From Phytoseiulus persimilis (Eukaryota > Arthropoda > Arachnida > Mesostigmata > Phytoseiidae): 64,000 bases of DNA. Below are positions 32,596 to 62,700 of this stretch, piece after piece. The notes below the pieces were generated by a model. The model made no database searches, was not told the origin of the DNA, and saw only the letters and a program-made list of their open reading frames with translations. The DNA lies in the NCBI GenBank assembly GCA_037576195.1, contig CM075103.1:4154001-4218000 (forward strand). Direction: 5' to 3'. Position numbers and translations under genes: made by a program. Position 1 is the stretch's first letter; each line of letters begins with the position of its first letter.

Positions 32596-35500
32596 TTAAG
32601 CGATCAATTTATTTTCTATGACAAACAGTGCGTAAATTGGTGGAAATATCAAGATGTAGGAGCAGGGAACCCTAACGCTGCTGCTCCCGAACAGGAACCT
32701 GGCTCCGGACTTCCAGGCGTTACTGATTTTTGTGAGATGTGCCTTTCTGTACGAACGAGGCTTCTCGGTGGTCTGCAGGGCCAGACCTCCCTCGCCTAGG
32801 ATGCACTCGAACCACTCTCCCTTTGTCAAGTTTCGATAGGGGAGGCTACAGACGTTTATCTCGATCTGGGCCACGCCTGCAACAGTGGTTCCTTCTTCAA
32901 GAACGAAGCCGCCTCCATTCAGGTCGTTACGGATTCTCAATAAAAAAGGAAGCTCAATCCCACGATGTACTGACCCGAATCGTGACCCACATAGAGTGAG
33001 CGGTGTTCCAAAGAGATTACCATGGCGGAGATCGGTTCTCCACTCGCTATGTCCTTCTCTCCATCGATGGGCTCCTCTGATGTACGTCCCTGGATCACCT
33101 TGATGACACGACCGTCGTCGGTACCGGCGTAGAGGATCGTGAACTGGTCTGGTCCGTGCTCTTCGCGATGGAAAGCGAGGGATACGAGAGCAACGCCTTC
33201 CCTGGCATTCGAGAAAATCGATTGGAGTCAGCTCCCTTACCACAGAACTCAATCATGCGAGCCCTCGCTCCCCACTATGCCCCGGGAATTCCTCCCTCAA
33301 AGGGAAGACCACAAACCTATGATAGACAGGTCGTCCTCCCAGAGACTGGACGACTGCGTCCATGTATGAATGGAACCGGATGAACGAGAGTGCGGCTTCG
33401 GGCAGCGTTTGGGTGTCATAACCGCACGAACCTGCTCGATGCTCCGGGTCACCGTACTGGGACAGCAGGGGATCCCATTCCTGCAGCCAGACCCGCCCGG
33501 CTTGGAATGCGCCGTTGAAGACATCGTTGATATACTGCAGGGGGAACGCGCACACGGCCGAAGCGCTTTTCGATGTGGATGCGAAACTAGCGTAGAACAT
33601 GCGGTCATCGTCCGGTATCTTGTAGACGGATTGAATTTCGTCGAAGTGGAACGTTTCTTCCCCGGGGAGGGAGCAGTTGAGACGGGCTTTCGAGTAGGTG
33701 GCCCAGGTGCCATTGAGCATTTTCCTGTTGCCAGTGTCGCTCTTGCAGAGTCGACCCACAAAAGAGAGGAAGGAACTCTTGCCAGTACTCCTGTCGAGCA
33801 CAAGGTCTCGGAAGAAGAAGTACACGTATCGCCCGATGTCGAAAGCGCCCACGAACTCTGGGGAGTCGAGCCATCTCGAATCGTTCATTGTGGTCATTGC
33901 GGCATACACCTCGTCCGAGCCCGGTACTTTGAAGAGGGGCATCCGGGTTATGCCTCTGAGTTTCTTTTTCAGGTCGACGGCTGTTCCTGCGTAAAGTCCA
34001 GGGAGATCGTCAGGGTTGCCTGCCTCGACCCAAATCGCGGCAGAAGCGTCATCAGGGTCGAAAGGACATCTCCCGGTGCCGTTACCGATTCCAGCGAATT
34101 TCTCATCGAGAGTCTGAAGGCTTTTCTGGGGAAGCGAGAGTGGCAACTGTGAGACTCTTCGGGGAATAGCGGACTCGAGGCGGGGCTGACTAATAATCAG
34201 TCTGGTCTGAATGAACTCAAAAGCAAAACGCTTTGCGAGTGCTTGTATATGAGCTCCAGCTCCGGGGAAACATCCGTGGAGCATTCCTCTCCCTCAAATG
34301 AACGGCGTTCTTCGCGGAACTGAGGGTAGCGGGTAGGCTTTGCAAATAACCGCATTTCTAAATAACCGCGGTCACGGTTAACCGATAATCGCAAATCCAT
34401 AACCGCAATAGCGGTTAACCGCAAAATTAGGACTGAAAACCGCGGTTATAACCGCAAATAACCGCGGTTATATGGAAACATGCTTCCTGGAATATTTCCA
34501 GGAAGCTTCTCCTATCAGGAAGAAGGTTCCATTATGAGCAGATACAACGAGATCTCAAAACACATCTCATAAAGACTCGTTTGTTACAACTCGACCTCGA
34601 TCAGATGGGGCCGGGGACATTGGTTGAACGTCTCAAGTCACGAAATCTTTGGTAAATTATCCTGATGCCAGAGAGATCATCTTGTATTGTGAAGCCCCCC
34701 GTCCGATGAATGTAGTCAGCAGTTTCGAGTTCAACTCCTCAGGATCCGCTGAGGAAGTTTTGCAAACTCTGGATTTGGCGCCGATTTCTGCACGGTTTCA
34801 CGAGCAACGAGTGCCCAAAGGCATGCTTCCTTGTTGGGTTGAGATAACTCACGTAGTTCCACGTCCTGAATCTCGAGTTTTTTTTTATATTGTGAATCCT
34901 CGAGGTCGTCTTTGAGGTGCTTCCAATTTTTGTCTGGCTCCAAATTACTGCTCCCGGCTTCGATATCACCGTTATCGTTTTGAGAAGGGCGTATGTCCTC
35001 CGTTCCGACCATTGCACGAGAGATAGCCGTTTTCAGGTAGGACTTCATCACAATTCTTTTATCGAGGCCTTCCTACGGGGGTGCAACCCACACAATAGCT
35101 ACTTCCGCTGTGCTCTGTTCCCTGATCCTACCAAATGCGCAGAGCTCTGGAAGATTGAGCCCCCAGCTTCCGATGCTGGCTCATCGATTCCCTGAACATG
35201 ATCGGGACATGCGTGTACAAACTTCGTTTAACGGGAGTCATCACACAAGATGTCACAGTTCTAGAAGCAATTCATTTCTCTTCAATCGCTCAGCACCTAA
35301 GTCCAGATTCCCAGCCAGAGTACGCTCATGAGACGCGAGGCTTCCTCGAAAAATCATAAGTTTCGGAAAATTGCGGGAAAATGCGGTTATAACCGCAATT
35401 CGCTCGCGGTTATTGCGGTTATTAATCGCGGTTAAATAACCGTTGCAAAGCCTAGTAACGGGAGAAACTGATGCCAAACCGCATCGGCATCGATTCAAAA

Positions 35501-42800: not shown

Positions 42801-44513
42801 CTTCCCAGGTCCGCGGATACTTGGAGCTTTTGGGTCCATGCCATGCTGTTCTCGAGGTTTCGTTCCCGTTGAAGCGAGACAACGGAGAATACGTCATGAT
42901 CGAGGGCTGGAGAGCTCAGCACTCTCTGCATCGAACCCCCTGCAAAGGCGGCATCCGCTACTCCACCGACGTCTGCCTCGATGAAGTCAAGGCTCTGTCC
43001 GCCTTGATGACTTTCAAGTGCGCCGTGGTAGACGTACCGTTCGGCGGAGGTGCGTCGTCGTTCTCTCCCTCTTCCCGGATCCCGTCCCGAAATTTTTCTC
43101 TTGATTCTCCACGCGGGGGGGTGAGCAGATTCATTTAAATGGGTGAACTCGTATTCCACAGGCAAAGCTGGATTGAAGATCAATCCTCGCGACTTCAGTG
43201 AACACGAGTTGGAGAAAATCACTCGAAACTTCGCTCTCCAACTCTCCAAGAAAGGTTTCCTGGGTCCGGGAGTCGACGTTCCCGCTCCCGACATGGGAAC
43301 CGGGGAGAGGGAAATGTCCTGGATCGCTGATACTTACGCTCAGACAATCGGTAAGAATCCAATCTTTTCGTTCCCGCACGTTACGTAAGCGCTCCCCGAC
43401 CGGATCGGATCAATGGACGAAGTCTTCGAAAAGCCGATCTCAAATTTCAGGTCACACCGATTTGAACGCTCATGCTTGCGTCACCGGAAAGCCAATCAAC
43501 CAAGGAGGAATCCACGGTCGCGTGTCCGCTACAGGAAGAGGTGTTTTCCACGGTTTGGACAACTTCATCAACGAAGCCTCTTACATGAGCCAGATCGGTA
43601 AGTTGATGATCTGTTGGCCTGTTCTCGACCTTCACCCCGTGTTTCCGAGCTCCACATAAAATGTCCCACGCCTCCGCAGTCCGGGTCTGAGAAATTCGAT
43701 TTTTTTTTCCCAGGAACCACCCCCGGCTGGGGAGGGAAGACCTTCATCGTGCAAGGTCTCGGGAACGTAGGTCTTCACTGCACCCGCTATCTCACAAGGG
43801 CCGGCGCGAAGTGCATCGGTATCCAGGAGGTCGACGGATCCATCTACAACGCCAACGGAATCGATCCCAAGGAGATCGAGGAGTGGAAGATCGCGCACGG
43901 CACCATAATGGGCTTCCCTGGTGCTGAAACCTACCAAGGAGAGAACATCAACTACGAGCCGTGCGACATTCTCGTGCCGGCTGCCATGGAGAAGGCGATC
44001 ACGAAAGACAATGCTCACAAAATCCAAGCCAAAATCATTGCCGAAGCTGCCAACGGACCCACAACACCTGCCGCCGACAAAATCCTTATGGACAGGAATA
44101 TTCTCGTCATCCCCGACCTGTACATCAACGCCGGCGGTGTCACCGTCTCCTACTTTGAGTGGTTGAAAAACCTGAACCACGTCTCGTACGGTCGTCTCTT
44201 GTTCAAGTACGAGCGAGAATCGAACTACCATCTGCTCCAATCGGTTCAGGAATCTCTTGAACGTCGTTTCGGGAAGATGGGAGGACACATTCCGGTCACG
44301 CCGTCCGAAGCCTTCCAGAAGAAAATCTCTGGAGCATCCGAAAAAGACATCGTGCACTCCGGTCTGGACTACACCATGGAGAGGTCTGCCCAGAGAATCA
44401 TGAGAACCGCTCATAAGTATAACCTCGGTCTTGACCTGCGCAGTGCCGCCTACGTGAACTCCATCGAGAAGATCATTCTCACCTACTCGCAAGCCGGGCT
44501 TACTTTCACCTAA
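39872..44513 (+). CDS. Glutamate dehydrogenase, mitochondrial (6 exons, 538 aa)
   Basis: It interconverts glutamate and 2-oxoglutarate plus ammonia with NAD(P) in the mitochondrial matrix. Exons: 39872-39950, 42519-42679, 42809-43049, 43162-43350, 43451-43597, 43714-44513; all splice sites are GT-AG and phases close exactly. Exon 1 encodes a basic, Ser/Leu/Arg-rich mitochondrial presequence ([20 protein letters not shown]), separated by a 2.6-kb intron. The mature part shows [10 protein letters not shown] (substrate Lys126), PFGGGKAGL (catalytic Lys162, 36 residues later as in bovine GDH), the Rossmann-type [18 protein letters not shown], and the animal antenna region with [12 protein letters not shown] and [13 protein letters not shown]. 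Length matches animal GDH (about 540-560 aa). A TATA-like box lies upstream and AATAAA follows at 44,547. No catalytic residue is missing. Intron 1 holds nothing I can recognise. Confidence 0.97.
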
Positions 44514-48512: not shown

Positions 48513-50840
48513 ATGATGGTCTCTAATTGGCAGCACATTCTAGCCCAGGATGCTAGATGGAATTCTCTGAAAGATCCTTTCATAAGTGAGTGTGAGCCGA
48601 AAGGTCCCATAAAGACTCGAAGTCTCGGTGTGATATCTCTTCGAACTGCATCGGCATTAATACCACTCTTCGGGTATTAATATCTGATTTCTCTTATCTG
48701 ATTACTGATTATCCGCGGCAAATTGTCGAGCTGTCTCGCGAGTTCGAATGCGAGTTGCAGTGATTCATAACGTCCGGGACGAAAATTTATCGCTCGCTGC
48801 GTTTCCCAGGAAATCTCTACCTCAGACGACGTTCGCAGCTCCTGTCAGAAGTCGTGGGAGACTCCGGATCACCCGGCTTCGACAAAAACTATCAGAAGTT
48901 GCGAGCTCAGCTCCTGACTTCAGCCTATGGCAGTCCTGAACAGCGGAGATCGAGTCGGAGCGATTCATTCCTGGTACGGAATAATCGATGACAGCGCTAT
49001 CGCTATTCGCGGAGTTCTTTCCAAGCTGTGGATAATCATTCGGAGGCTGTTTTCCTCATGAGGAGCCGTGACTGCGACTGTTTGGATTCCAGGCCCAAGA
49101 CACATCATTCACAGAGGGATCGGACGGAGGTCGCTCCTGGAGCACACCAGGGGCGATCCAGGATGCGCTCACTCCTTCGAAAGATGCTCACGCCAGCCGG
49201 TGAACCGCCTCGCTGAGGCCTTAGAGAATTTCGTCGCCCAGATTGCACGCGACAGTCGATGCTGTGCGGAGCCTAAACTCTTAACACTCTTCCCGTTTCC
49301 AGAGCGTTGGCCGGCGTCATGACCGAAAGCTTGTCGCTGTCCTACACTTTTTCCGGAGTGCACCATATTTTCGAGCAATCCTCCTGCGTGAACTGCCTCT
49401 CGTTCGCAAATAATAACCCGGAACTATTGGCGGTCGCGGACTCCCAGGGCGTCCTTTGCATCTATCAGGTCGACCCACCGAAGGTCAGCACCTTTATTTG
49501 CACACGGAATCTTCATTTTTCCTCCGGGATTGGTTTGTGCTGATTGCGCTCTGCTTTGCCAGATCTTGCATCGAATACCAGCTCACGGTGGTCCAATCGT
49601 CGACCTTGAGTGGTCGATTTCGAACGATGTGATCATTTGTTGCTCGATCGATTGTTCTCTGTCGGTCTGGGACTCATCGAAAGGATCTTTGCTGCGGAGT
49701 ATCAGGGATACCGTCCCCATCATGTGCACCGCTTTTCAACCTGCGAACAATAACATGCTAGCCGTGAGTAGATCTTCAACAAGCGGAACACTTTTCGACT
49801 CGGGGCGACGCGAGGCGAAGATCGGATTCTCTCAAGCCAACAATCCTGCACTTCTGTTGTAATTTCCAGATGGGGAACGCTCGGGGTTTGATTCAAGTTG
49901 TGAGCGTTTCGACAGGGATGGTCGTTCGCGGGGGATGCCAACAACTTCAAGGGAGCGCCCGCGCTCAAGCCCTCACATTCTCGATCTGCGGAACCCTGCT
50001 TTGGGTCGGTGACGACAAGGTGAGATGGTTTTCTACCGCTGAGTTTCCCTTCGCCTCCTGAATGGATTCCAGCCAGAAGGGGGAATCCGAACCTGTTCCG
50101 TTTCCAGGGCAGCATCCATTCATATGTCTTCGACATTGGTTCGGGTAGACTCCTGAAGGGACGTCGGTTCTGCGCGCCGGAGGGCAAGCCGGTGACTTGT
50201 ATCTCCTTCCGACATTGGGTGAACAGACAAGCCCGGGACCCTTGTCTCCTGGTGAGCGCACTTTTTCTTGGAGAACATCTGAAATTTTGTCTCGATTGCC
50301 ATCGATACTATTGTGTCTGGTGGTCGAATCATAAGTCATCAACGAATCGCAGGTGAATAGCGGAAACCTCTTGCTGGTGTATGGAGTCGTAAACGCTAAA
50401 GACGGAACCCTGGTTCTCAAAAAGCGGATCCACGTGTCCTCGGAGACCGCTTTGAAATCCTGTTTCTCGCCTATCATGTCATTCAGGTGCATTTTTTTGG
50501 AAATAGAAACGATCCAGAGCTTCCCTGGGACCCGCTTCGCTATGAATCGTAGTCTCCACTCAAAGAACGATTCTCCCTCGAGCTCGGGAGGCACACCTCT
50601 AAACAGAGTCAATCGATTCCGGTTCTCAGAGATGGATCGTGCGTGGTGACCGGGAGCAATGACGGGGGTTTGATCTTCTTCGACGTCACTCCATCCCACG
50701 CGTCCTCACCGGTCAACACTCTGCACGGTCATTCGAGTGCCGTTACGGACGTGGGTTTCGCTGCGGATGAGAAAATGTTGGCGTCCGCTGATTCGACAGG
50801 CGTCGTGATCCTTTGGAAGAAAGAAGATCGACAACGATAG
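48513..50840 (+). CDS. WDR13, WD40-repeat protein (9 exons, 454 aa)
   Basis: WDR13 is a conserved nuclear WD40-repeat protein of poorly defined function, linked in mammals to transcriptional and growth control. Exons: 48513-48585, 48810-48973, 49093-49199, 49303-49483, 49563-49763, 49870-50019, 50108-50251, 50353-50486, 50630-50840; phases close throughout. The diagnostic N-terminus (NWQHILAQDARWN) matches human WQQVLAVDARYN, exon 2 gives YLRRRSQLL, and the exon 3/4 junction gives ASRALAG as in human ASRAMAG. The propeller part shows PANNNMLAMGNA, LLWVGDDKGSIHSYVFD, RQARDPCLLVNSGNLLLVYGVV, VVTGSNDG and the last repeat LHGHSSAVTDVGFAADE. Human WDR13 is 485 aa, so the linker is slightly shorter here. 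Two adjacent ATGs begin exon 1; the first is taken. It is convergent with DXO-A. Confidence 0.95.
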
Positions 50841-51348: not shown

Positions 51349-52557
51349 TTATTCTGGCAGGAAATTTTCTTCCATATCATCGACGTACCAGTCTGGTAGG
51401 ACTTGGTACTTTCTGAAGTTGGGATCGTTGTGAGGAAGCTGCATCACTTTTATGCTTCGGGTCTCCGGATTGAATTCGTACAGGACGACTTTCCTCCGGT
51501 TCTCCTCGGAGTTATGGTGCAGCACAAACTCCAGGAAATTATTCAGGAAGGCCATGGCTTCCGTGCCCTTCCATATGGGTCGACCCAGTTCTTCCAGCGT
51601 GTGCAGCTTGTAGCTCCGGATGTTCTCGACCACTCCTTCGTCGTCTCGATACCCACATATGACCCGGGGAATGTTGAGTATTTTCGACTGAGACCACCAC
51701 TTCAACATTTTCCTGAATAACGCGTGCTGCTGGCTTTTGGTGTCGATGCGACGGGCGATCCGCAATTCGACGAAACGCTCCGTGCAGTTCCGCATCTCAG
51801 GGTTGTCCGAGGTGAGTTTGGGGTCAACGGCCGCCACTCGAGCGGCGAAAATAAGCGTGTGGTGTTTGCTCAGATGGGATCGTGTCACCGTGTAGGTGAC
51901 CTCGTTCTCGTTCGCGGACGCCTCCGGGTTCGGTCTGCCCTTCGGTCGCGCAGCGGTCATGTACTGCTCGAACTTGTAACGCCACGCCACCTGCCGTCGC
52001 TTTTCATCTGTGTAGAGACTCCTCCGACCCGGTTTGTATTGGCACATGTAAATGGTGTCCCGGTACTTGGTGGCACCCATCACCCATCCTCTGCTGTGTT
52101 CGTGGACAGAGCACATGATCTTGGCGAGCAGACCCCTGTAACAAATGAATTCGGTGTGCAAGCTGGACAGCTCGTCTGATCCGCAGGCTTCCTTGAAAAC
52201 GCTGAAATTCTCCGTGATCCATCGGAGCAGATGATCGATTTTGTCGTTCACGGCGGGATCCTTCGGGTTGCGGGTGTCGAAAGCCACGTTAAGGTCCCAA
52301 TTGAGAACATCGTTGTTTCCGGGCTCAACGAGGAACGCTCTTTTCGAGAAGCCGTTTACGTGATCTCTTTCGCCGAAGCGGCTGAAACTTCCGAGTTCGA
52401 CGATCTCGGGCACATAGGGTTCGGGCGGAGCGTCCGGGACGTGGGTCGAGATCTCGGCAATCGTCGGGTACTGAACTGAAATCCGGAAATTCATTAGGAT
52501 TCCGAGCGCTTGCGACCGAGAGGTTTGGCTTGATTGTTTTCCCACGATCCGCTTCAT
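51349..52557 (-). CDS. DXO/Rai1-family paralogue A, predicted catalytically inactive (402 aa)
   Basis: The DXO/Rai1 family removes incomplete or NAD caps from RNA 5' ends and degrades the RNA. This single-exon protein aligns end to end with paralogue B: VELGSFSRFG, LNWDLNVAFD, YRGLLAKIMCSV, WRYKFEQYM, LKWWSQSKIL, IPRVICGYRDDEGVV and a C-terminal LPDWYVDDM (human DXO LPVWYVEAM). Retained are Arg141 (motif I), Glu197 in YKFEQ, Glu264 and Gln290. Lost are the metal-binding Glu-x-Asp, which reads Arg240-Val-Ala242 (codons at 51,832-51,840), and the motif Lys, now Arg266 (FVELRIA instead of YVELKTS). In mouse DXO the equivalent Glu234, Asp236 and Lys255 are needed for activity. The frame is otherwise intact, so a conserved non-catalytic role, such as partner binding to an Xrn2-type nuclease, is possible. 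Translation may begin at 52,557 or at the internal ATG at 52,494. Confidence 0.9.
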   Translation of the reverse strand: MKRIVGKQSSQTSRSQALGILMNFRISVQYPTIAEISTHVPDAPPEPYVPEIVELGSFSRFGERDHVNGFSKRAFLVEPGNNDVLNWDLNVAFDTRNPKDPAVNDKIDHLLRWITENFSVFKEACGSDELSSLHTEFICYRGLLAKIMCSVHEHSRGWVMGATKYRDTIYMCQYKPGRRSLYTDEKRRQVAWRYKFEQYMTAARPKGRPNPEASANENEVTYTVTRSHLSKHHTLIFAARVAAVDPKLTSDNPEMRNCTERFVELRIARRIDTKSQQHALFRKMLKWWSQSKILNIPRVICGYRDDEGVVENIRSYKLHTLEELGRPIWKGTEAMAFLNNFLEFVLHHNSEENRRKVVLYEFNPETRSIKVMQLPHNDPNFRKYQVLPDWYVDDMEENFLPE

Positions 52558-54500
52558 TGAACGGAATCGTTCGCGGCGTTCAGGAGTGGGGAAGGATCGA
52601 GCTCATCCGCACACGGCCGAGACGGAACCGCGGCGGAGCTTTGAATCCAGTTTTGAACGGGATTGCAACTCACAGTGCTCGCGGAACGTTCTTTCGGGAC
52701 CTCGGTGATCGTGGCGCCTGGACGTCGATGGCCTCCTGCGCGCGCCGCTCATCACGTAAAAGGGCGGGGAGTGCTTCCGTGAGGAGTCGCAACGGACTAT
52801 GGAACCGAGTTGGATCAGCTGCCGACGAGGCACCTTCCGGCTCTCGATCGTCGTTGATCTCTGTCAATATTTACCGGCGCCACGAAGTCCGAAATACGAG
52901 ACGAGCGCTTGTTTCAGCGGTGCACGTGTGACACGTCGATGCAAAGTAAAGCTCGCACACGCTCTCGACTCATTCTTCCCGACCAGATACTGTTGTGTTC
53001 TCTTGCCGATATTTTCCGAGCGAAGTTGACAATTCCGTGATCGAGCGTCGATGCTGTCTTCTTCGAGTCCAGCAGTTCTTCTTGGAGCTCTAGTCAACTG
53101 AGAGCTCCCTCGCAGTGGCTCGGCTTCAACTGTAAAAGAGGCCTCGTGTTCCATGAGACCGGAATTCATGAGCGTCGTTCCATGATTCCGCAGTCGATTG
53201 CTTGCGATCTATGCAAAAGTAATGATTGGTTATAATAATGTTTTCCTATAGTAGGGTATCATCGAGACTCGAGTGATGCCGAAGTTGGGTAAGAAGCTCA
53301 TTTTATGAGGTGACTTCGGGCGAACTCGCTCTTGAACAGCTGAACTGACTTATGACTGAAGAGAAACCTCAGCAGCAGATCTTGTCGAGACGGGTCCCGA
53401 TCAAACTGTCCAGGACAGCAATCAGTGGGCTTTCAAAGTCGAGATGCCGAATCAGTGAGACCGCAAAACGTATCGAGGGAACGACGAGATTCCGTGGGAC
53501 CTGCCGCAACGTTCGGAGGGAAACGCTCTCCGAGCTGAAAGTCATCGATCAGATACATGTGAACCTATTGTTATGACGGAATATCGTGGCTCTGAAACTG
53601 GTTCTGGTCACACAGGCCCAATATTCATCATGATGCGAGTTACTGCGCTCGGGAAAGGATAAGATCAGGAAACAGTTCTCTTTCTGGTCCCTCCGAATCT
53701 TTGGCCGAAGACGGCTTGTCCGCGAGCTCACGAGTGACAACCATGAATCTGAGCTCCCAGGCATCGGGGGCTACTCAGAACAGCAGCTTCGTGGTGACGC
53801 CACTGCTTACAGTTCACAGCCTCGTCGCGTAGAATCCTGAGAATACTCACCCTCGTTTCTTCCAGATCGGGGAAATGCTGGGAACGATGCGAGTGCGCTG
53901 TCGTGAGATTTCAGCCTAGTTTCCCATCCGGGACACCAGTCATGAAAAACCACCCCGGGAAGGAAATTAACTCTGCATTAATTCAACGTGTACATATCGC
54001 CTCTCGAAGAGAAGGGTCTCCATTCGAGCTATAAATATGAACTCTGGGCCACTCTCGGAACTCGAGACCAATTTATTCAAGCTATCCCAAGATTTGGTTC
54101 CTCTCCAAAGTTTTCAGTTCGTATTCCTCTGGCAGGGCTCGAGGCCGCTCGTGTAGGGCCCTTGAAGATCACCGGATTCATCCGCATGAGCCTGCGAAAC
54201 ACAACCAGCACTTTCGACGCCCCACCAAAGAATCAAGATCGCACCTGACTGTTGCCGCTGATGACTTAGCTGCTCGAGATGTCCCTCCCGCAGACTCTTC
54301 GCGTCGTTCGGGAGTCGCTGGTAGAGTTCCGGTGGAAAAACTCCTCGGAACCACAAACTGTCCCCTGGGATTCGAGGATCTGGACGTGCGTTGATTTCAT
54401 GATGAGTTCCGCGGAACCACTCGGAGGGCAGGAAGGAATCCGCGGGAAAGTGGACTGTTTACAATGTGAACCGGTTCCGGCAGCAGAGCGGTGGCCACGG
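52558..54500. other. Spacer between the two DXO paralogues
   Basis: About 1.9 kb with no recognisable exon. TTTATT at 54,072-54,077 is a minus-strand AATAAA about 424 bp beyond the DXO-B stop. The spacer presumably contains the DXO-A promoter. Confidence 0.5.
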
Positions 54501-55785
54501 TTAACGCAGTTGTCTGTCCATGAATTCGATGTACCAAGATGGTAGTATTTGAAATTGCTCAAAATCTCTGCATTCGCTCGGCAAGTCCATGCATTTGATC
54601 GCCCGGTTCTGAGGCACGAACTCGAACAGCGTCACTCTCCGCTCGGAGGAGTTCCGCTTCACGAAATGCAGGAATTCTTCCAAGAATGTCAGCATATCCT
54701 CCGGCGACCAATACTTCTCCCCCAGTCTAACCAGCTCGGGGAGATTGTAACTCTCCAAGCTTTCTACGATCCCGTCGTCGTCCCGAAAGCCGCAGATAAC
54801 CCTGGGAATGCCTATCAAATGACTCTGCGCCCACCACTTGATTGCTTTGAATTTAATCAAGTTCTCATGCTGTCGTCGATTGTCTACACGTCGGGACGTC
54901 TTCATTTCTACATATCGACGAGTGGAATGCTTCAGATGGGGCTTTTGCTCTACGAGTTTCGGGTCTACGGCATCAACTTCGGCTCCGTAAACCATGGAGT
55001 GGCTCTTCCCCAAGCGGGTCCTGACCACGGAGCAGAACTCCTCCTTTTCGTTCGCGGGCTTTTCGGGAGTAGGCTTCCCGCCGGGCTCTGAGGCTGTCAA
55101 GAATTGTTCGAATTTGTAACCCCACGCCGAAGCACGTCTCAATCTGTCAGGCATGTTCTTCTCACGCTCGATCCTCTCAGCTGTCTCGTATTGGCACATG
55201 TAGATCGTTTCTCTATATCTCGTCGACCCCATTATCCAGGCATCCTTGTTCTCGAAGACGGAGCACATTATTGCTGTCAGCAGTCCGCGGTAGGAGACGA
55301 AGTCCGTGTGCAGAGTCGCGAGCTTGCCTTCATCGCACGGCGCACGAAACTTCTCGACGTTGTCCTTTATCCACAGGAGGAGGTTGTCGAGCTTTTCGGA
55401 CAAGCTGTGATTCTTTTGTACGCGCGCCTCGTAGGCCAGATTCAGATCCCAGTCCAGATGGTCATGAGATGTCGGCTCCACCAGATAAGCGATCCGAGAT
55501 GTGTCGTGAACGTATTCTCTATCTCCAACGAGACAGAAGTTCCCCAGTTCGACTTGTTCGCGGAAAGCTGGTGCTCCATTCGCCGTGAAAGGCCTTCGGA
55601 CCTTGAGCGAGTCTTTGACAGGATACCGAACTGGAACGAAATGCGCTTCTAAGACGCTGTTGTCTGGCGAAAAGAGTTTACAGGTGCTAGATCTGATGAT
55701 AAATTATCGTCTGTGACTGAAGTTGTCGTTCGCCAGCTCGGCTATCACCGAGGCTCCATCGAAGACGTCACTCACAGTTCTCCAT
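54501..55785 (-). CDS. DXO/Rai1 decapping exoribonuclease, paralogue B (390 aa, active-site intact)
   Basis: This protein is predicted to hydrolyse non-canonical or incomplete RNA caps and then act as a 5'-3' exonuclease, in nucleus or cytoplasm. Coding exon 1 is only 10 nt (55785-55776, ATG GAG AAC T before GTGAGT); exon 2 is 55663-54501 after TTTTCGCCAG. The tiny first exon is inferred from phase and splice consensus. Motifs: VELGNFCLVG, SYRGLLTAIMCSV, GYKFEQFL (Glu189), GAEVDAVDPK (Glu232, Asp234), YVEMKTS (Glu256, Lys258), KWWAQS (Gln283), GFRDDDGIV, and a C-terminal LPSWYIEFM. Every catalytic position of mouse DXO is present. Length matches human DXO (396 aa). It lies 1.9 kb upstream of paralogue A in the same orientation, indicating tandem duplication, and is divergent from KMO with about 470 bp between start codons. 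Confidence 0.93.
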
Positions 55786-56254: not shown

Positions 56255-58132
<1,878 letters not shown>

Positions 58133-58704: not shown

Positions 58705-59868
58705 TCATCGCATCTTCACCCCGGTCATTTGATAGAGGTACTGCCCCGCATCGAAACGTAGTTCTTCTAAGCTATATACCGGTACTCCATTTGTCCACAA
58801 GCAGTGGATCATCGATAAGCTGCAGCCGGTGAACGTTGCCAGCCACTGTCTGACGCCGTGGAGATGCTTTTGCTTGTTTACTCTTAACAGTTCGAAGAAG
58901 GCCACGTACAGGAGACTCCCTCCCGATATGCCCAGCAGGCCGCCCAGTTTGGTGACAGATACGTCCATCGAGCCCACCAGCAGAGTCAGCAGGCAGCCTA
59001 TCGACGGCATTACGCTGAATATCAGTAGCACCCCCAGGATTGATTTCGTTTCTACCTTCAAATCCAGCAGCTCGATCACGGTCGGCACCGCGATGACGAT
59101 TCGGTACACCATGATGGTGGAGGAAATGTACCAGGTCTGCTGGACGCTCGGTTGCAGGCCCACGCAGAAGCCGTCGAGGATGGAATGTAAACACAGGACT
59201 GTAACTCCGAGGTAAGTTTTCCAGGTTAGCCTCGAAGCTTGGCCCTCCTGCCCGGCGGAGCCAGAACTTCGCAAGGCTGCCGCTCCTCCGGCACCAACTT
59301 CTGGGAATTTTCCGGGGCGGCAGGAAGCATCAATCGAAGCTCGTTGCTCTCCACCGTTGGGAAACGCTTTTCGATGTTTTTCGTTTTCGTATACCCGGCC
59401 GCGAACGAACTGCGCGATGTAGAGGTGCCATCTGTCGTCGTCGTCCCTGTCACTGGCGCCGTACGGCATGGAGAGTGTTTCTTGCATCAGCCACGCCACG
59501 AGGAATCCCAGGGTCAGATAGATCTCGGGGCCGGGATACGAGTTGTTCCCGTAGATCCGAGTCCGGATGGTCGGCAGAACGTTGCAGAAGACCGCGGCGA
59601 CCAGCTGTCCTGCGCAAGCGCAGAGCCCAGCCATGCAGACCGCGGTGTAGACGGCCGATGCTCGCAGCCATGCTACGCAGTCTCGTATTTTATCGTCGGA
59701 TAGAACGATTCTCGACAGCAGGGGCAGGGCGCCGGCGGTGAATGTCAAAACGAGCATGCACACCGGCGCCATGTATCTCACCTGGCGCAGCGCTTGCAGG
59801 ACGGCTCCTTCGTGGAAGAGGGCGACGTAGTCGGCGACCATTTCCTCGCGCAGCCCTTTCATGTCCAT
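58705..59868 (-). CDS. ZIP (SLC39)-family membrane protein with atypical metal site (387 aa)
   Basis: ZIP proteins import zinc or iron into the cytosol. This single-exon protein has the family layout: hydrophobic segments near residues 34-55, 67-98 and 113-132, a hydrophilic loop (about 137-215) and further hydrophobic segments from about 217 on. Subfamily-I landmarks are YPGPEIYLTLGF (TM3), HSILDGFCVGLQ (TM4, His228 kept, usual Glu replaced by Asp232) and GGSLLYVAFFELL (TM6). The usual TM5 HKxxxA reads YRIVIA, so the conserved His is Tyr255. The TM6 Glu before the GTFLY-like motif is Leu312. The loop has acidic residues (DRDDDDRW) but no His-rich cluster. It may carry another metal, have reduced transport, or be regulatory. 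The ATG at 59,868 gives the usual family length; a second ATG lies two codons on. KMO converges on it; SC5D lies upstream. Confidence 0.82.
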   Translation of the reverse strand: MDMKGLREEMVADYVALFHEGAVLQALRQVRYMAPVCMLVLTFTAGALPLLSRIVLSDDKIRDCVAWLRASAVYTAVCMAGLCACAGQLVAAVFCNVLPTIRTRIYGNNSYPGPEIYLTLGFLVAWLMQETLSMPYGASDRDDDDRWHLYIAQFVRGRVYENEKHRKAFPNGGEQRASIDASCRPGKFPEVGAGGAAALRSSGSAGQEGQASRLTWKTYLGVTVLCLHSILDGFCVGLQPSVQQTWYISSTIMVYRIVIAVPTVIELLDLKVETKSILGVLLIFSVMPSIGCLLTLLVGSMDVSVTKLGGLLGISGGSLLYVAFFELLRVNKQKHLHGVRQWLATFTGCSLSMIHCLWTNGVPVYSLEELRFDAGQYLYQMTGVKMR

Positions 59869-60403: not shown

Positions 60404-60428
60404 CTATCTATCCATCTATCTATCTATC
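60404..60428 (+). repeat. CTAT microsatellite at the SC5D stop codon
   Basis: About six CTAT/CCAT units run directly into the SC5D stop codon (60,427-60,429 on the minus strand), so the array begins the 3'UTR of that gene. Length variation here would not change the protein unless it moved the stop. Confidence 0.8.
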
Positions 60429-61401
60429 AGTCGGCCTTCGACTCCATGGAATCAGCGACCGGCCGGGCGTAGCTCCTGGAATCCTCTCCTTCCTCTCGTT
60501 TTATCACCTCATCAACCTGTAGGATCTGCTTCTGCCAAGTTTCATTGTCCATCTTGACAGAGGGATCGAATATCGCGGCGTCAGCTCTCCGGTAGGAGCC
60601 ACCTATCCGGTCCCAGAGCGTGGTGAATTGTCCATAATTGTATCGATAGTAAAGGTGATGCACCGTGTGACAAGCGGCTCCGTTGATGACAGCATTGTTG
60701 GCCAGTACCTCTCCATCGTGAATGAGCACGGTCCAAATGTTGATGAATCCGAAGAGAGCCAAGTATGCTAGCTTGTGAAGCGGGAAGACGAAAGGGAAAA
60801 TGTGATAGGGGAGGCTCTGCAAGTACCCGTCGACAGGGTGGAACGCGTGACTCGCGAAAGGTGTGGGCACGATCCACTTGTGATGCGGTTTGTGCAAGTG
60901 CTTGTAGACGAGTCGATGGTGCAAGCCTCGATGGATGTAATAAATCAAGCAGTCGCTGAAAATTACGAACAGAGGGAATTGGAGAATCAGGTACCAAATC
61001 CCGTATTCAGCAACGTCGTCGTAGAGCAGCGAATGGCCGCGGACTTCAGCGACGAACCACAGCGCTGTCAGGAGCGCCATGATTGGCACAGCAATCATGG
61101 TGAGACTTATCTCTTGCCGGATCTGGTCCTTCAAATATCTCGGATGGCGCTTTGTATTTTTATCGAACACGAGCCAATATGAGAGCGAGGCTGTCAAGAG
61201 GTAGAGAGCGGCACCGAAAATCCACGTAATGAAGAACAGAGACGAGTATTGACGATGGATGTTGTCGCGCGGTAAAAACGTTCCGTCGACGCATGCCCCA
61301 TCGCCGTCGAGGTACGGTGCTAGCAACGAGTCACAGGGGAGCACTCTCGCGTACACACTGTCCAACAGAAAGTCGTCGCATGTGTTCAGCACGTAATCCA
61401 T
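60427..61401 (-). CDS. Lathosterol oxidase / sterol C5-desaturase (324 aa, intronless)
   Basis: SC5D introduces the C5-C6 double bond into lathosterol to give 7-dehydrocholesterol in the endoplasmic reticulum, using a non-haem di-iron centre. The protein is full length (human 299 aa) and aligns throughout: FDKNTKRHPRYLKDQIRQEI, EVRGHSLLYDD, YYIHRGLHHRLVYKHLHK, TPFASHAFHPVDGYLQSLPY, NIWTVLIHDGE and YNYGQFTTLWDRIGGS. All His clusters of the fatty-acid-hydroxylase superfamily are present: HRGLHH (157-162), HKPHH (170-174), HAFH (185-188) and HTVHH (245-249). Hydrophobic segments lie near residues 55-78, 102-120 and 135-155. The start is the ATG at 61,401 (MDYVLNTCDDF); the frame is open upstream but has no better ATG nearby. 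Arthropods generally cannot make sterols de novo, so its substrate is probably dietary sterol. Confidence 0.93.
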   Translation of the reverse strand: MDYVLNTCDDFLLDSVYARVLPCDSLLAPYLDGDGACVDGTFLPRDNIHRQYSSLFFITWIFGAALYLLTASLSYWLVFDKNTKRHPRYLKDQIRQEISLTMIAVPIMALLTALWFVAEVRGHSLLYDDVAEYGIWYLILQFPLFVIFSDCLIYYIHRGLHHRLVYKHLHKPHHKWIVPTPFASHAFHPVDGYLQSLPYHIFPFVFPLHKLAYLALFGFINIWTVLIHDGEVLANNAVINGAACHTVHHLYYRYNYGQFTTLWDRIGGSYRRADAAIFDPSVKMDNETWQKQILQVDEVIKREEGEDSRSYARPVADSMESKAD

Positions 61402-62700
61402 CGCGTTAGACCTCAAGCTTCGCTGTCGCCGCGAAGTGTTCGCCGGTCAGCGATCGGCCGTATCCACAGCGTACTGCAAGCTGCTCCTTGCGGCTCTATT
61501 CGAAAGCTCGAGATATATTTTCGAGAGCGACGCGCCTTTATCGAATCCTTCCGCGGACAGAACCGCTTTATCGCCCAATCGGGATTTCAAACAGGGACCC
61601 GCATTCCGAACGGATTTGCCTTGAACTTGGGCTCTCGAGTGTTCTTTGAACTCGGTTGAACAAGTGTCCTCTCTCGATAACTAATCACGGTTGATAATCT
61701 GTTTTTATGCATACGGACAGCTTCAGATTCTGGAAGCGACTTTGATTTTGGTGCTCGCTGTCACTGGACTCGGGAAGATGAACAAAAAAACATTCCGGAA
61801 ACGGCAGAGCTCTTCTATCACCGTTTCCTTTGATGAATGTCTTCTTGAATAACATGGAGGCCGATCAAGGCTGAAAGGAATCCCGGGAGGAAAATGGGAC
61901 TCGGGAAAAACACTTGTTCGACAAGGAATCCGCTGTTCAGAGCTTGACATTTCAGAAGCACTCCCGATCGCTGCCTTTATTTCGAAAACGATAGATTCTC
62001 CAGGAAATGCGATTCCAATCCGCGTCTGGGACCGCTCGAGAATGATTCCCGAGGAAGCTCCGATTCGATTCGAGTTTCGCTCCGTTCAGTGCAGTCGGTG
62101 ACGGATGTGTAACGGAATACCGATGCGACAAAGATGTGCCGGGGAAAATCCCGAACAAGGATGCCCTGATGCTCTGTGTGCATAAAGACGTTAGAACCGG
62201 TTAGTGAAATAAGATGAGAGAACGAGCTCTTCGAGAGCTCGGAACGTTCACGAGGATTCGTCCTCGAAGATTACGTCCACCCAGTGTTCGGACAGAACCC
62301 CCGTCGACGATCTCCTCCTCCTCCGTCCAATGAAAACAGGAGTTTGTCGAACTTGCTGTAAGACATATAACGGCCGTTCGTTATCGAAATGCAATGAAGG
62401 GGATTTTTTGTTTGAGTTGTCCTGTTTCGAGCCCTCTCCTCTTCAGTGAATCGAGCTCACCTGGAGACATGCCGAAATGATGCAGAAGGCTTGAGTGCTG
62501 GTCACGTTACTCGACAAGGCGGACTGTGGGAGTTCAAAAAGTCAACATTGGTTCGTTCCTGTCGTCGTAATTGCTCAGGGGCCGACTGCCCCAGGAGCCC
62601 TGATCTTGGATCAGCTCGTTTGGAGGACTTCTTCAGGAGGAGTTTATCGACCCTAGCCGCTGATGCTCGCGATGAAGAAATTCGATCGAACAATACTCAC
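61402..62700. other. No supported gene; may hold 3' exons of the small secreted protein
   Basis: SC5D's promoter should lie at the left edge. Further exons of the minus-strand secreted protein are expected between about 62,690 and 61,500, but I could not identify one. No RNA gene or repeat stands out. Confidence 0.4.

What the first reader, a model, noticed from the sequence alone, without database searches (positions are those of the whole stretch)
51349..55785. Tandem DXO/Rai1 duplication with one predicted pseudoenzyme
Two same-strand DXO paralogues lie 1.9 kb apart. Copy B keeps Glu232-x-Asp234, Glu256-x-Lys258, Glu189 and Gln283. Copy A has an intact 402-codon frame but reads Arg240-x-Ala242 in place of Glu-x-Asp and Arg266 in place of Lys, while scaffold motifs remain. 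An intact frame with selectively lost catalysis suggests a retained non-catalytic function, such as binding an Xrn2-like nuclease or competing for capped RNA ends.
Basis: partly seen in the sequence, partly recalled or inferred. Interest (0 to 1): 0.75.

Follow-up and report, generated by a model that had tools for sequence, protein, structure and literature searches.

The report
Duplicate RNA-decapping gene, catalytic site lost
Two neighbouring copies of the gene for the RNA-end-trimming enzyme DXO sit side by side; one looks like a normal enzyme while the other has kept its protein frame but lost key cutting-site residues, rather like a known fruit-fly protein, so it probably acts without cutting.

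Summary
Two same-strand DXO/Rai1 genes (Pfam RAI1, 207 and 269 bits) lie 1.7-1.9 kb apart. Copy B keeps the main catalytic residues; copy A has Arg for Glu234, Ala for Asp236 and Arg for Lys255 (mammalian DXO numbering). Each needs at least two base changes, so miscalls are unlikely. Published mutants at Asp236 and at the presumed equivalents of Glu234 and Lys255 are inactive. The copies are sisters, 44% identical, with saturated silent sites (54 of 73 four-fold sites differ). Neutral decay since duplication would have filled copy A with stops. It is therefore an old, long-constrained, predicted pseudoenzyme; recent death is not excluded without transcripts or relatives. A DXO relative lacking catalytic residues (Drosophila Cutoff) and tandem DXO clusters (C. 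elegans) are known: a new member of a known kind. XRN2 binding is disfavoured by a review; a non-cleaving RNA 5'-end binder is likelier but unproven.

The parts
51349..52475 (-). Copy A exon 2: DXO/Rai1-like domain, predicted pseudoenzyme
   Evidence: Open reading frame; Pfam RAI1 E 4.7e-61; DXO best solved relatives, E 1.7e-41. Searches were given the 402-aa ORF.
52674..52752 (-). Copy A predicted exon 1, 26 codons plus one base, 8 Arg of 26 residues
   Evidence: ATG frame ending at a GTGAGT donor, phase 1; no transcript evidence
52476..52673 (-). Copy A predicted intron, 198 bases, phase 1 (contains the first 27 codons of the 402-codon ORF)
   Evidence: GTGAGT...TTTCAG; same phase and protein position as in copy B
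51838..51840 (-). Copy A codon CGA, Arg, at the position of DXO Glu234
   Evidence: at least 2 base changes from any Glu codon
51832..51834 (-). Copy A codon GCG, Ala, at the position of DXO Asp236
   Evidence: at least 2 base changes from any Asp codon
51760..51762 (-). Copy A codon CGG, Arg, at the position of DXO Lys255
   Evidence: at least 2 base changes from any Lys codon
54501..55630 (-). Copy B exon 2: DXO/Rai1 domain with the main catalytic residues intact
   Evidence: Open frame; Pfam RAI1 E 9.4e-80 and PDB E 8.9e-48, both with only the 326-aa ORF 54501-55481 given
55776..55785 (-). Copy B predicted exon 1 (Met-Glu-Asn plus one base)
   Evidence: ATG then GTGAGT donor, phase 1; no transcript evidence
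55631..55775 (-). Copy B predicted intron, 145 bases, phase 1
   Evidence: GTGAGT...TTCCAG, joins before Phe-x-Tyr-Pro as in copy A
54972..54980 (-). Copy B Glu-x-Asp (DXO Glu234-x-Asp236), GAA...GAT
54900..54902 (-). Copy B Lys (DXO Lys255), AAG

Best explanation
An old tandem, DNA-level duplication gave this lineage two DXO genes. Copy B is probably the working decapping exonuclease. Copy A lost the motif III acids (Glu234 to Arg, Asp236 to Ala) and the motif IV lysine (to Arg), so it should not cleave. It still matches the RAI1 profile from end to end and keeps Arg132 and Gln280 (which recognise the 5' phosphate in mouse DXO) and Tyr189. The likeliest role is a non-cleaving binder of RNA 5' ends that shields chosen transcripts from decapping or decay, in the manner proposed for Drosophila Cutoff. 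Shown from sequence: paralogy, residue losses, long constraint; the shared intron is predicted. Inferred: inactivity of A, activity of B. Hypothesis only: RNA-end shielding. About 0.8 for 'retained pseudoenzyme', about 0.4 once the shielding role is included.
For: Residue mapping. D236A is cited as abolishing mouse DXO activity and D236A/E253A was dead in assays (PMC5877831, passages); Arabidopsis E394A and K412Q are described as catalytically inactive (PMC13353720, passages; equivalence to E234 and K255 recalled); metals are held by motifs II, III and IV (PMC9283932, passages); Arg132 and Gln280 recognise the 5' phosphate (PMC6943137, passages). Sister copies, support 0.995. Four-fold sites: 54 of 73 differ, 0.716 expected if random, against dN 0.45-0.49. 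Third-position GC 0.71 in copy A, 0.65 in copy B; overall GC 0.52 in the spacer. Of 42 columns invariant in five outgroup proteins, copy A alone lost 11 and copy B alone 1 (binomial p=0.006). Precedent: Cutoff is described as a Rai1 homologue lacking key catalytic residues, proposed to bind caps (PMC11125864, passages).
Against: No transcript, protein, relative or structural evidence; both AlphaFold models failed (mean pLDDT 34.1 and 34.8). Copy A evolves faster (branch 0.67 against 0.35; Tajima 45:27, p=0.034, and 40:26, p=0.085 without the site list), which also fits relaxed constraint. Loss at the recalled active-site list is not enriched (5 of 11 against 40 of 105, p=0.75). The 11:1 skew set against the other unique changes has p=0.025, and p=0.24 if four conservative changes are dropped. 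Copy A also has E101D, G188R and C217Y; positions 101 and 217 are substrate-side by recall, so RNA binding itself may be impaired.
Confidence: 0.4

Rival explanations
1. Copy A is a retained pseudoenzyme whose role is protein-protein: it regulates copy B or scaffolds a complex (Xrn2-like nuclease, cap methyltransferase or another factor) rather than binding RNA ends.
For: Yeast Rai1 activates Rat1 (PMC6769589, PMC10511037, passages). Arabidopsis DXO1 works mainly through a non-catalytic N-terminal extension that activates RNMT1 (PMC13353720, passages). Copy A has a longer, Arg-rich predicted N-terminus that copy B lacks.
Against: C. [quoted passage not shown] No partner evidence. Copy A's predicted exon 1 is only 26 codons and unverified; the Arabidopsis extension is about 200 residues.
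Confidence: 0.25
2. Copy A lost function recently and is at the start of decay.
For: Faster branch and loss of family-invariant residues; at neutral divergence of 0.02 and 0.05 a frame stays stop-free in about 37-38% and 9% of simulations. Transcripts not seen.
Against: No stop or frameshift and consistent predicted splice sites; third-position GC well above the spacer's GC. The silent divergence (lower bound about 1.5 per four-fold site) excludes decay since duplication.
Confidence: 0.17
3. Copy A is still an enzyme, with a rebuilt metal site (Glu192, Glu253 and others) or a narrower activity.
For: Motif II Glu, motif IV Glu, Arg132 and Gln280 are kept. Family members differ in activity, and variable residues of the cavity appear to define this (PMC6943137, passages).
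Against: Both motif III acids are gone and the motif IV Lys is Arg; single changes at D236 and at the presumed equivalents of E234 and K255 are reported inactive.
Confidence: 0.13
4. The missing residues are a sequencing or assembly error.
For: Only one assembly was seen.
Against: At least two base changes are needed in each of three codons, with other changes nearby (G188R, C217Y, T256I, S257A) and an otherwise clean frame.
Confidence: 0.02

Closest known systems
Drosophila Cutoff (Cuff), Rai1/DXO-family protein of the Rhino-Deadlock-Cutoff complex
   Same: DXO/Rai1 relative reported to lack key catalytic residues (PMC11125864, passages).
   Different: Cutoff works at dual-strand piRNA clusters; no such link was looked for or is known to me for copy A. 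Orthology could not be tested: I had no Cutoff sequence. Copy A's nearest tested relative is copy B.
Mammalian DXO (Dom3Z)
   Same: Best solved relative of both copies; copy B keeps its main catalytic residues.
   Different: Copy A lacks Glu234, Asp236 and Lys255. Both copies have Tyr for Trp131; copy B has Met for Leu254.
C. elegans EOL-1/DOM-3 family: 10 DXO homologues in one paper, 9 in a later one, 6 of the 10 in tandem clusters
   Same: Tandem DXO duplication in an animal (PMC7735679, passages; PMC12247656, passages).
   Different: EOL-1 keeps the Glu homologous to DXO E253; I did not see whether any other C. elegans copy lacks catalytic residues.
Arabidopsis DXO1
   Same: Catalytically inactive mutants still complement dxo1 phenotypes, so a DXO can matter without catalysis (PMC13353720, passages).
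   Different: That function lies in a plant-specific extension of about 200 residues; the wild-type enzyme is active.

Membership tests
DXO/Rai1 family (PF08652) | Match to the RAI1 profile above the curated cut-off | tested here: met
   A 207.3 bits, B (326-aa part) 268.8 bits, cut-off 26.8
DXO/Rai1 family (PF08652) | Fold of the PD-(D/E)XK type | tested here: inconclusive
   AlphaFold models had mean pLDDT 34-35 and were not searched; fold inferred from homology only
Active DXO/Rai1 enzyme (copy A) | Motif II, III and IV acids and motif IV Lys | tested here: not met
   Copy A: E192 and E253 kept; E234, D236 and K255 lost
Active DXO/Rai1 enzyme (copy B) | Motif II, III and IV acids and motif IV Lys | tested here: met
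   Copy B keeps E192, E234, D236, E253 and K255
Active DXO/Rai1 enzyme | Decapping or 5'-3' exonuclease activity | not testable with these tools
   Needs purified protein
Cutoff | DXO/Rai1 relative without key catalytic residues | tested here: met
   Copy A; the description of Cutoff is from PMC11125864 (passages)
Cutoff | Orthology with Cutoff | not tested
Cutoff | Complex with Rhino/Deadlock and action at piRNA clusters | not testable with these tools
   Needs experiments and the whole genome; none is held
Xrn2/Rat1-binding Rai1 | Rat1-binding interface residues | not tested
   Interface residues not mapped; a review says DOM-3 and human DXO lack them (PMC10511037, passages)

The most novel reading that the evidence does not exclude
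An animal lineage outside flies independently turned a tandem DXO duplicate into a Cutoff-like non-cleaving cap/5'-end guard. Arginines take over the charge of the lost metal ions, so RNA ends are gripped rather than cut, protecting special transcripts (for instance small-RNA precursors) from the active neighbour enzyme.
Probability: 0.15. Interest if true: 0.72.

Novelty: new member of a known kind. Interest (0 to 1): 0.4.

Why it matters
If copy A is expressed and retained without catalysis, it would be a further case, possibly independent of fly Cutoff, of a DXO/Rai1 protein becoming a non-cutting regulator. An active and a predicted-dead copy side by side in one genome would make the non-catalytic roles of this family directly testable.

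Tried and rejected
Structure: two AlphaFold jobs on two-sequence alignments gave mean pLDDT 34.1 and 34.8; I drew nothing from them and ran no fold search.

Relatives: two scans of bacterial/archaeal genomes and two of viral contigs found no relative. No whole genome is held for the window. Metagenome scans were capped at 0, so no relatives from other mites were reached and no lineage-specific dN/dS could be computed.

Pairwise dN/dS: NG86 gave dN 0.49, dS 2.96 and maximum likelihood 0.45 and 5.0; LWL85 and YN00 failed with math errors. Because silent sites are saturated I use only a lower-bound argument, not a ratio.

Retrocopy origin was rejected because both copies share a phase-1 intron at the same place, but that rests on predicted splice sites.

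The 14-position active-site list was recalled, not taken from a call. At position 185 I expected Glu and the reference has Met, so the list is imperfect. Of the 14 positions 11 are the same in B and DXO; three (131, 185, 254) are not. The enrichment test on it was negative and is reported.

DNA repeats and tandem repeats showed only short, weak repeat families and no tandem arrays around the two copies. A PDB search with part of copy B added nothing.

Papers: PMC3243597 (Pane 2011) and 10.1093/gbe/evw048 (recalled as the Metaseiulus genome paper) were not held. Passages of PMC5788515 and PMC11695829 were seen and not used. Searches bearing on DXO duplicates or pseudoenzymes, mites or arthropods: 20 of 65 papers listed; 20 of 234; 15 of 13,086; 11 of 11. 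None of the listed titles or abstract starts reported such a pair; PMC4275035, the one paper shown with all four terms, was not opened.
Full report
What is there. Two DXO/Rai1 genes lie on the minus strand of an apparently eukaryotic window. The Pfam RAI1 profile is matched at positions 5-333 of 333 by copy A (207 bits, E 4.7e-61) and 34-332 by copy B (269 bits, E 9.4e-80; only its 326-residue ORF was given). The best solved relatives of both are chains named DXO or Dom3Z. The two proteins are 44% identical (167 of 377 aligned positions). tblastn with both (E up to 1) finds no third copy in the window.

Gene structure. Each copy has a predicted phase-1 intron that begins GTGAGT and ends CAG and joins directly before a Phe-x-Tyr-Pro motif: 198 bases in A, 145 in B. 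The shared position and phase argue for DNA-level duplication, not retroposition. In this model copy A encodes 401 residues with an Arg-rich first exon (8 Arg of 26) and copy B 379 residues with a first exon of three codons plus one base. No transcript supports either model. An AATAAA lies 253 bases after A's stop; neither AATAAA nor ATTAAA was found within 400 bases after B's.

Catalytic residues. Numbering is that of chain 10yz_A, whose printed letters look the same by eye as those of 4j7l, called mouse DXO in PMC5877831. Copy B keeps Glu101, Arg132, Glu192, Cys217, Glu234, Asp236, Glu253, Lys255 and Gln280, but has Tyr for Trp131 (as does A) and Met for Leu254. Copy A keeps Arg132, Glu192, Glu253, Leu254 and Gln280 but has Asp101, Tyr217, Arg234, Ala236 and Arg255, and also Arg188, Ile256 and Ala257. 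The Arg234, Ala236 and Arg255 codons each need at least two base changes from any codon of the expected residue, so a few miscalls cannot explain them. Published mutants: D236A is cited as abolishing mouse DXO activity and D236A/E253A is dead (PMC5877831, passages); Arabidopsis E394A and K412Q are inactive (PMC13353720, passages; their equivalence to E234 and K255 is recalled). A review places the metals on motifs II, III and IV and 5'-phosphate recognition on Arg132 (PMC9283932, passages). Inactivity of copy A is therefore a strong inference, not a measurement.

Age and constraint. With one mammalian DXO and four fungal Rai1 proteins, A and B are sisters (support 0.995), with branches 0.67 (A) and 0.35 (B). 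Of 73 comparable four-fold sites 54 differ, as many as random letters would give (expected 0.716); the lower bootstrap bound corresponds to about 1.5 changes per site. The total amino-acid-changing divergence is only 0.45-0.49. If silent rates were equal on both branches, a copy A neutral since duplication would alone have needed about 0.75 or more. In a substitution-only simulation (2000 runs per setting, started from either copy) a neutral frame stayed stop-free in 37-38% of runs at 0.02 changes per site, 9% at 0.05 and under 1% at 0.1. Third-position GC is 0.71 in A and 0.65 in B, against an overall GC of 0.52 in the spacer. Copy A was thus constrained for most of its history; recent death is not excluded.

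How selective is the loss? Of 42 columns invariant in the five outgroup proteins, A keeps 19 and B 29; 11 are lost in A alone, 1 in B alone and 12 in both. The 11:1 skew has binomial p=0.006; against the other unique changes (45:27 in all) Fisher p=0.025, and p=0.24 if four conservative changes are dropped (the two alignments differ, so this comparison is rough). On the recalled active-site list, A changed 5 of 11 sites where B equals DXO, against 40 of 105 elsewhere (p=0.75); B changed 1 of 7 where A equals DXO, against 26 of 91. Tajima's test gives 45:27 (p=0.034), or 40:26 (p=0.085) without the site list. So A's core is unusually eroded by one measure and not by the other, on a somewhat faster branch.

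How it may work. The residues named in print as contacts of the RNA 5' phosphate (Arg132, Gln280; PMC6943137, passages) are kept in A. The metal site loses acids and gains positive charge (E234R, D236A, G188R). A non-cleaving 5'-end binder that shields RNA is the simplest role, close to what is proposed for Drosophila Cutoff, described as a Rai1 homologue that lacks key catalytic residues and is proposed to bind caps (PMC11125864, passages) and possibly to suppress termination (PMC4131230, passages). No reliable structural model was obtained.

Novelty. Tandem DXO clusters are known: 6 of 10 C. elegans homologues (PMC7735679, passages); a later paper counts nine homologues (PMC12247656, passages). 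A DXO/Rai1 relative without catalytic residues is known (Cutoff). I saw no paper on such a pair in mites or other arthropods in the listings, which cover open-licence papers only and, save, only the top rows. I file it as a new member of a known kind.

Noticed in passing
52674-52752: Copy A's predicted first exon is Arg-rich (8 of 26 residues), while copy B's is three codons plus one base; with it copy A has calculated pI 8.7 against 6.9 for B (7.4 for A without it). Might be a nuclear or RNA-binding tail.
   Followed up: partly
56434-57138, + strand: ORF with an FAD_binding_3 domain divergent from copy B; looks like kynurenine 3-monooxygenase (name recalled).
   Followed up: no
58705-59868 - and 60427-61416 -: ZIP zinc transporter and fatty-acid hydroxylase domain ORFs.
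   Followed up: no
33253-34284 -, 43614-44513 +, 49530-49862 +: Sema domain, glutamate-dehydrogenase-type domain and WD40 repeat ORFs, consistent with an animal genome.
   Followed up: no
window 1-64000: No Rfam match at gathering threshold anywhere in the window.
   Followed up: yes
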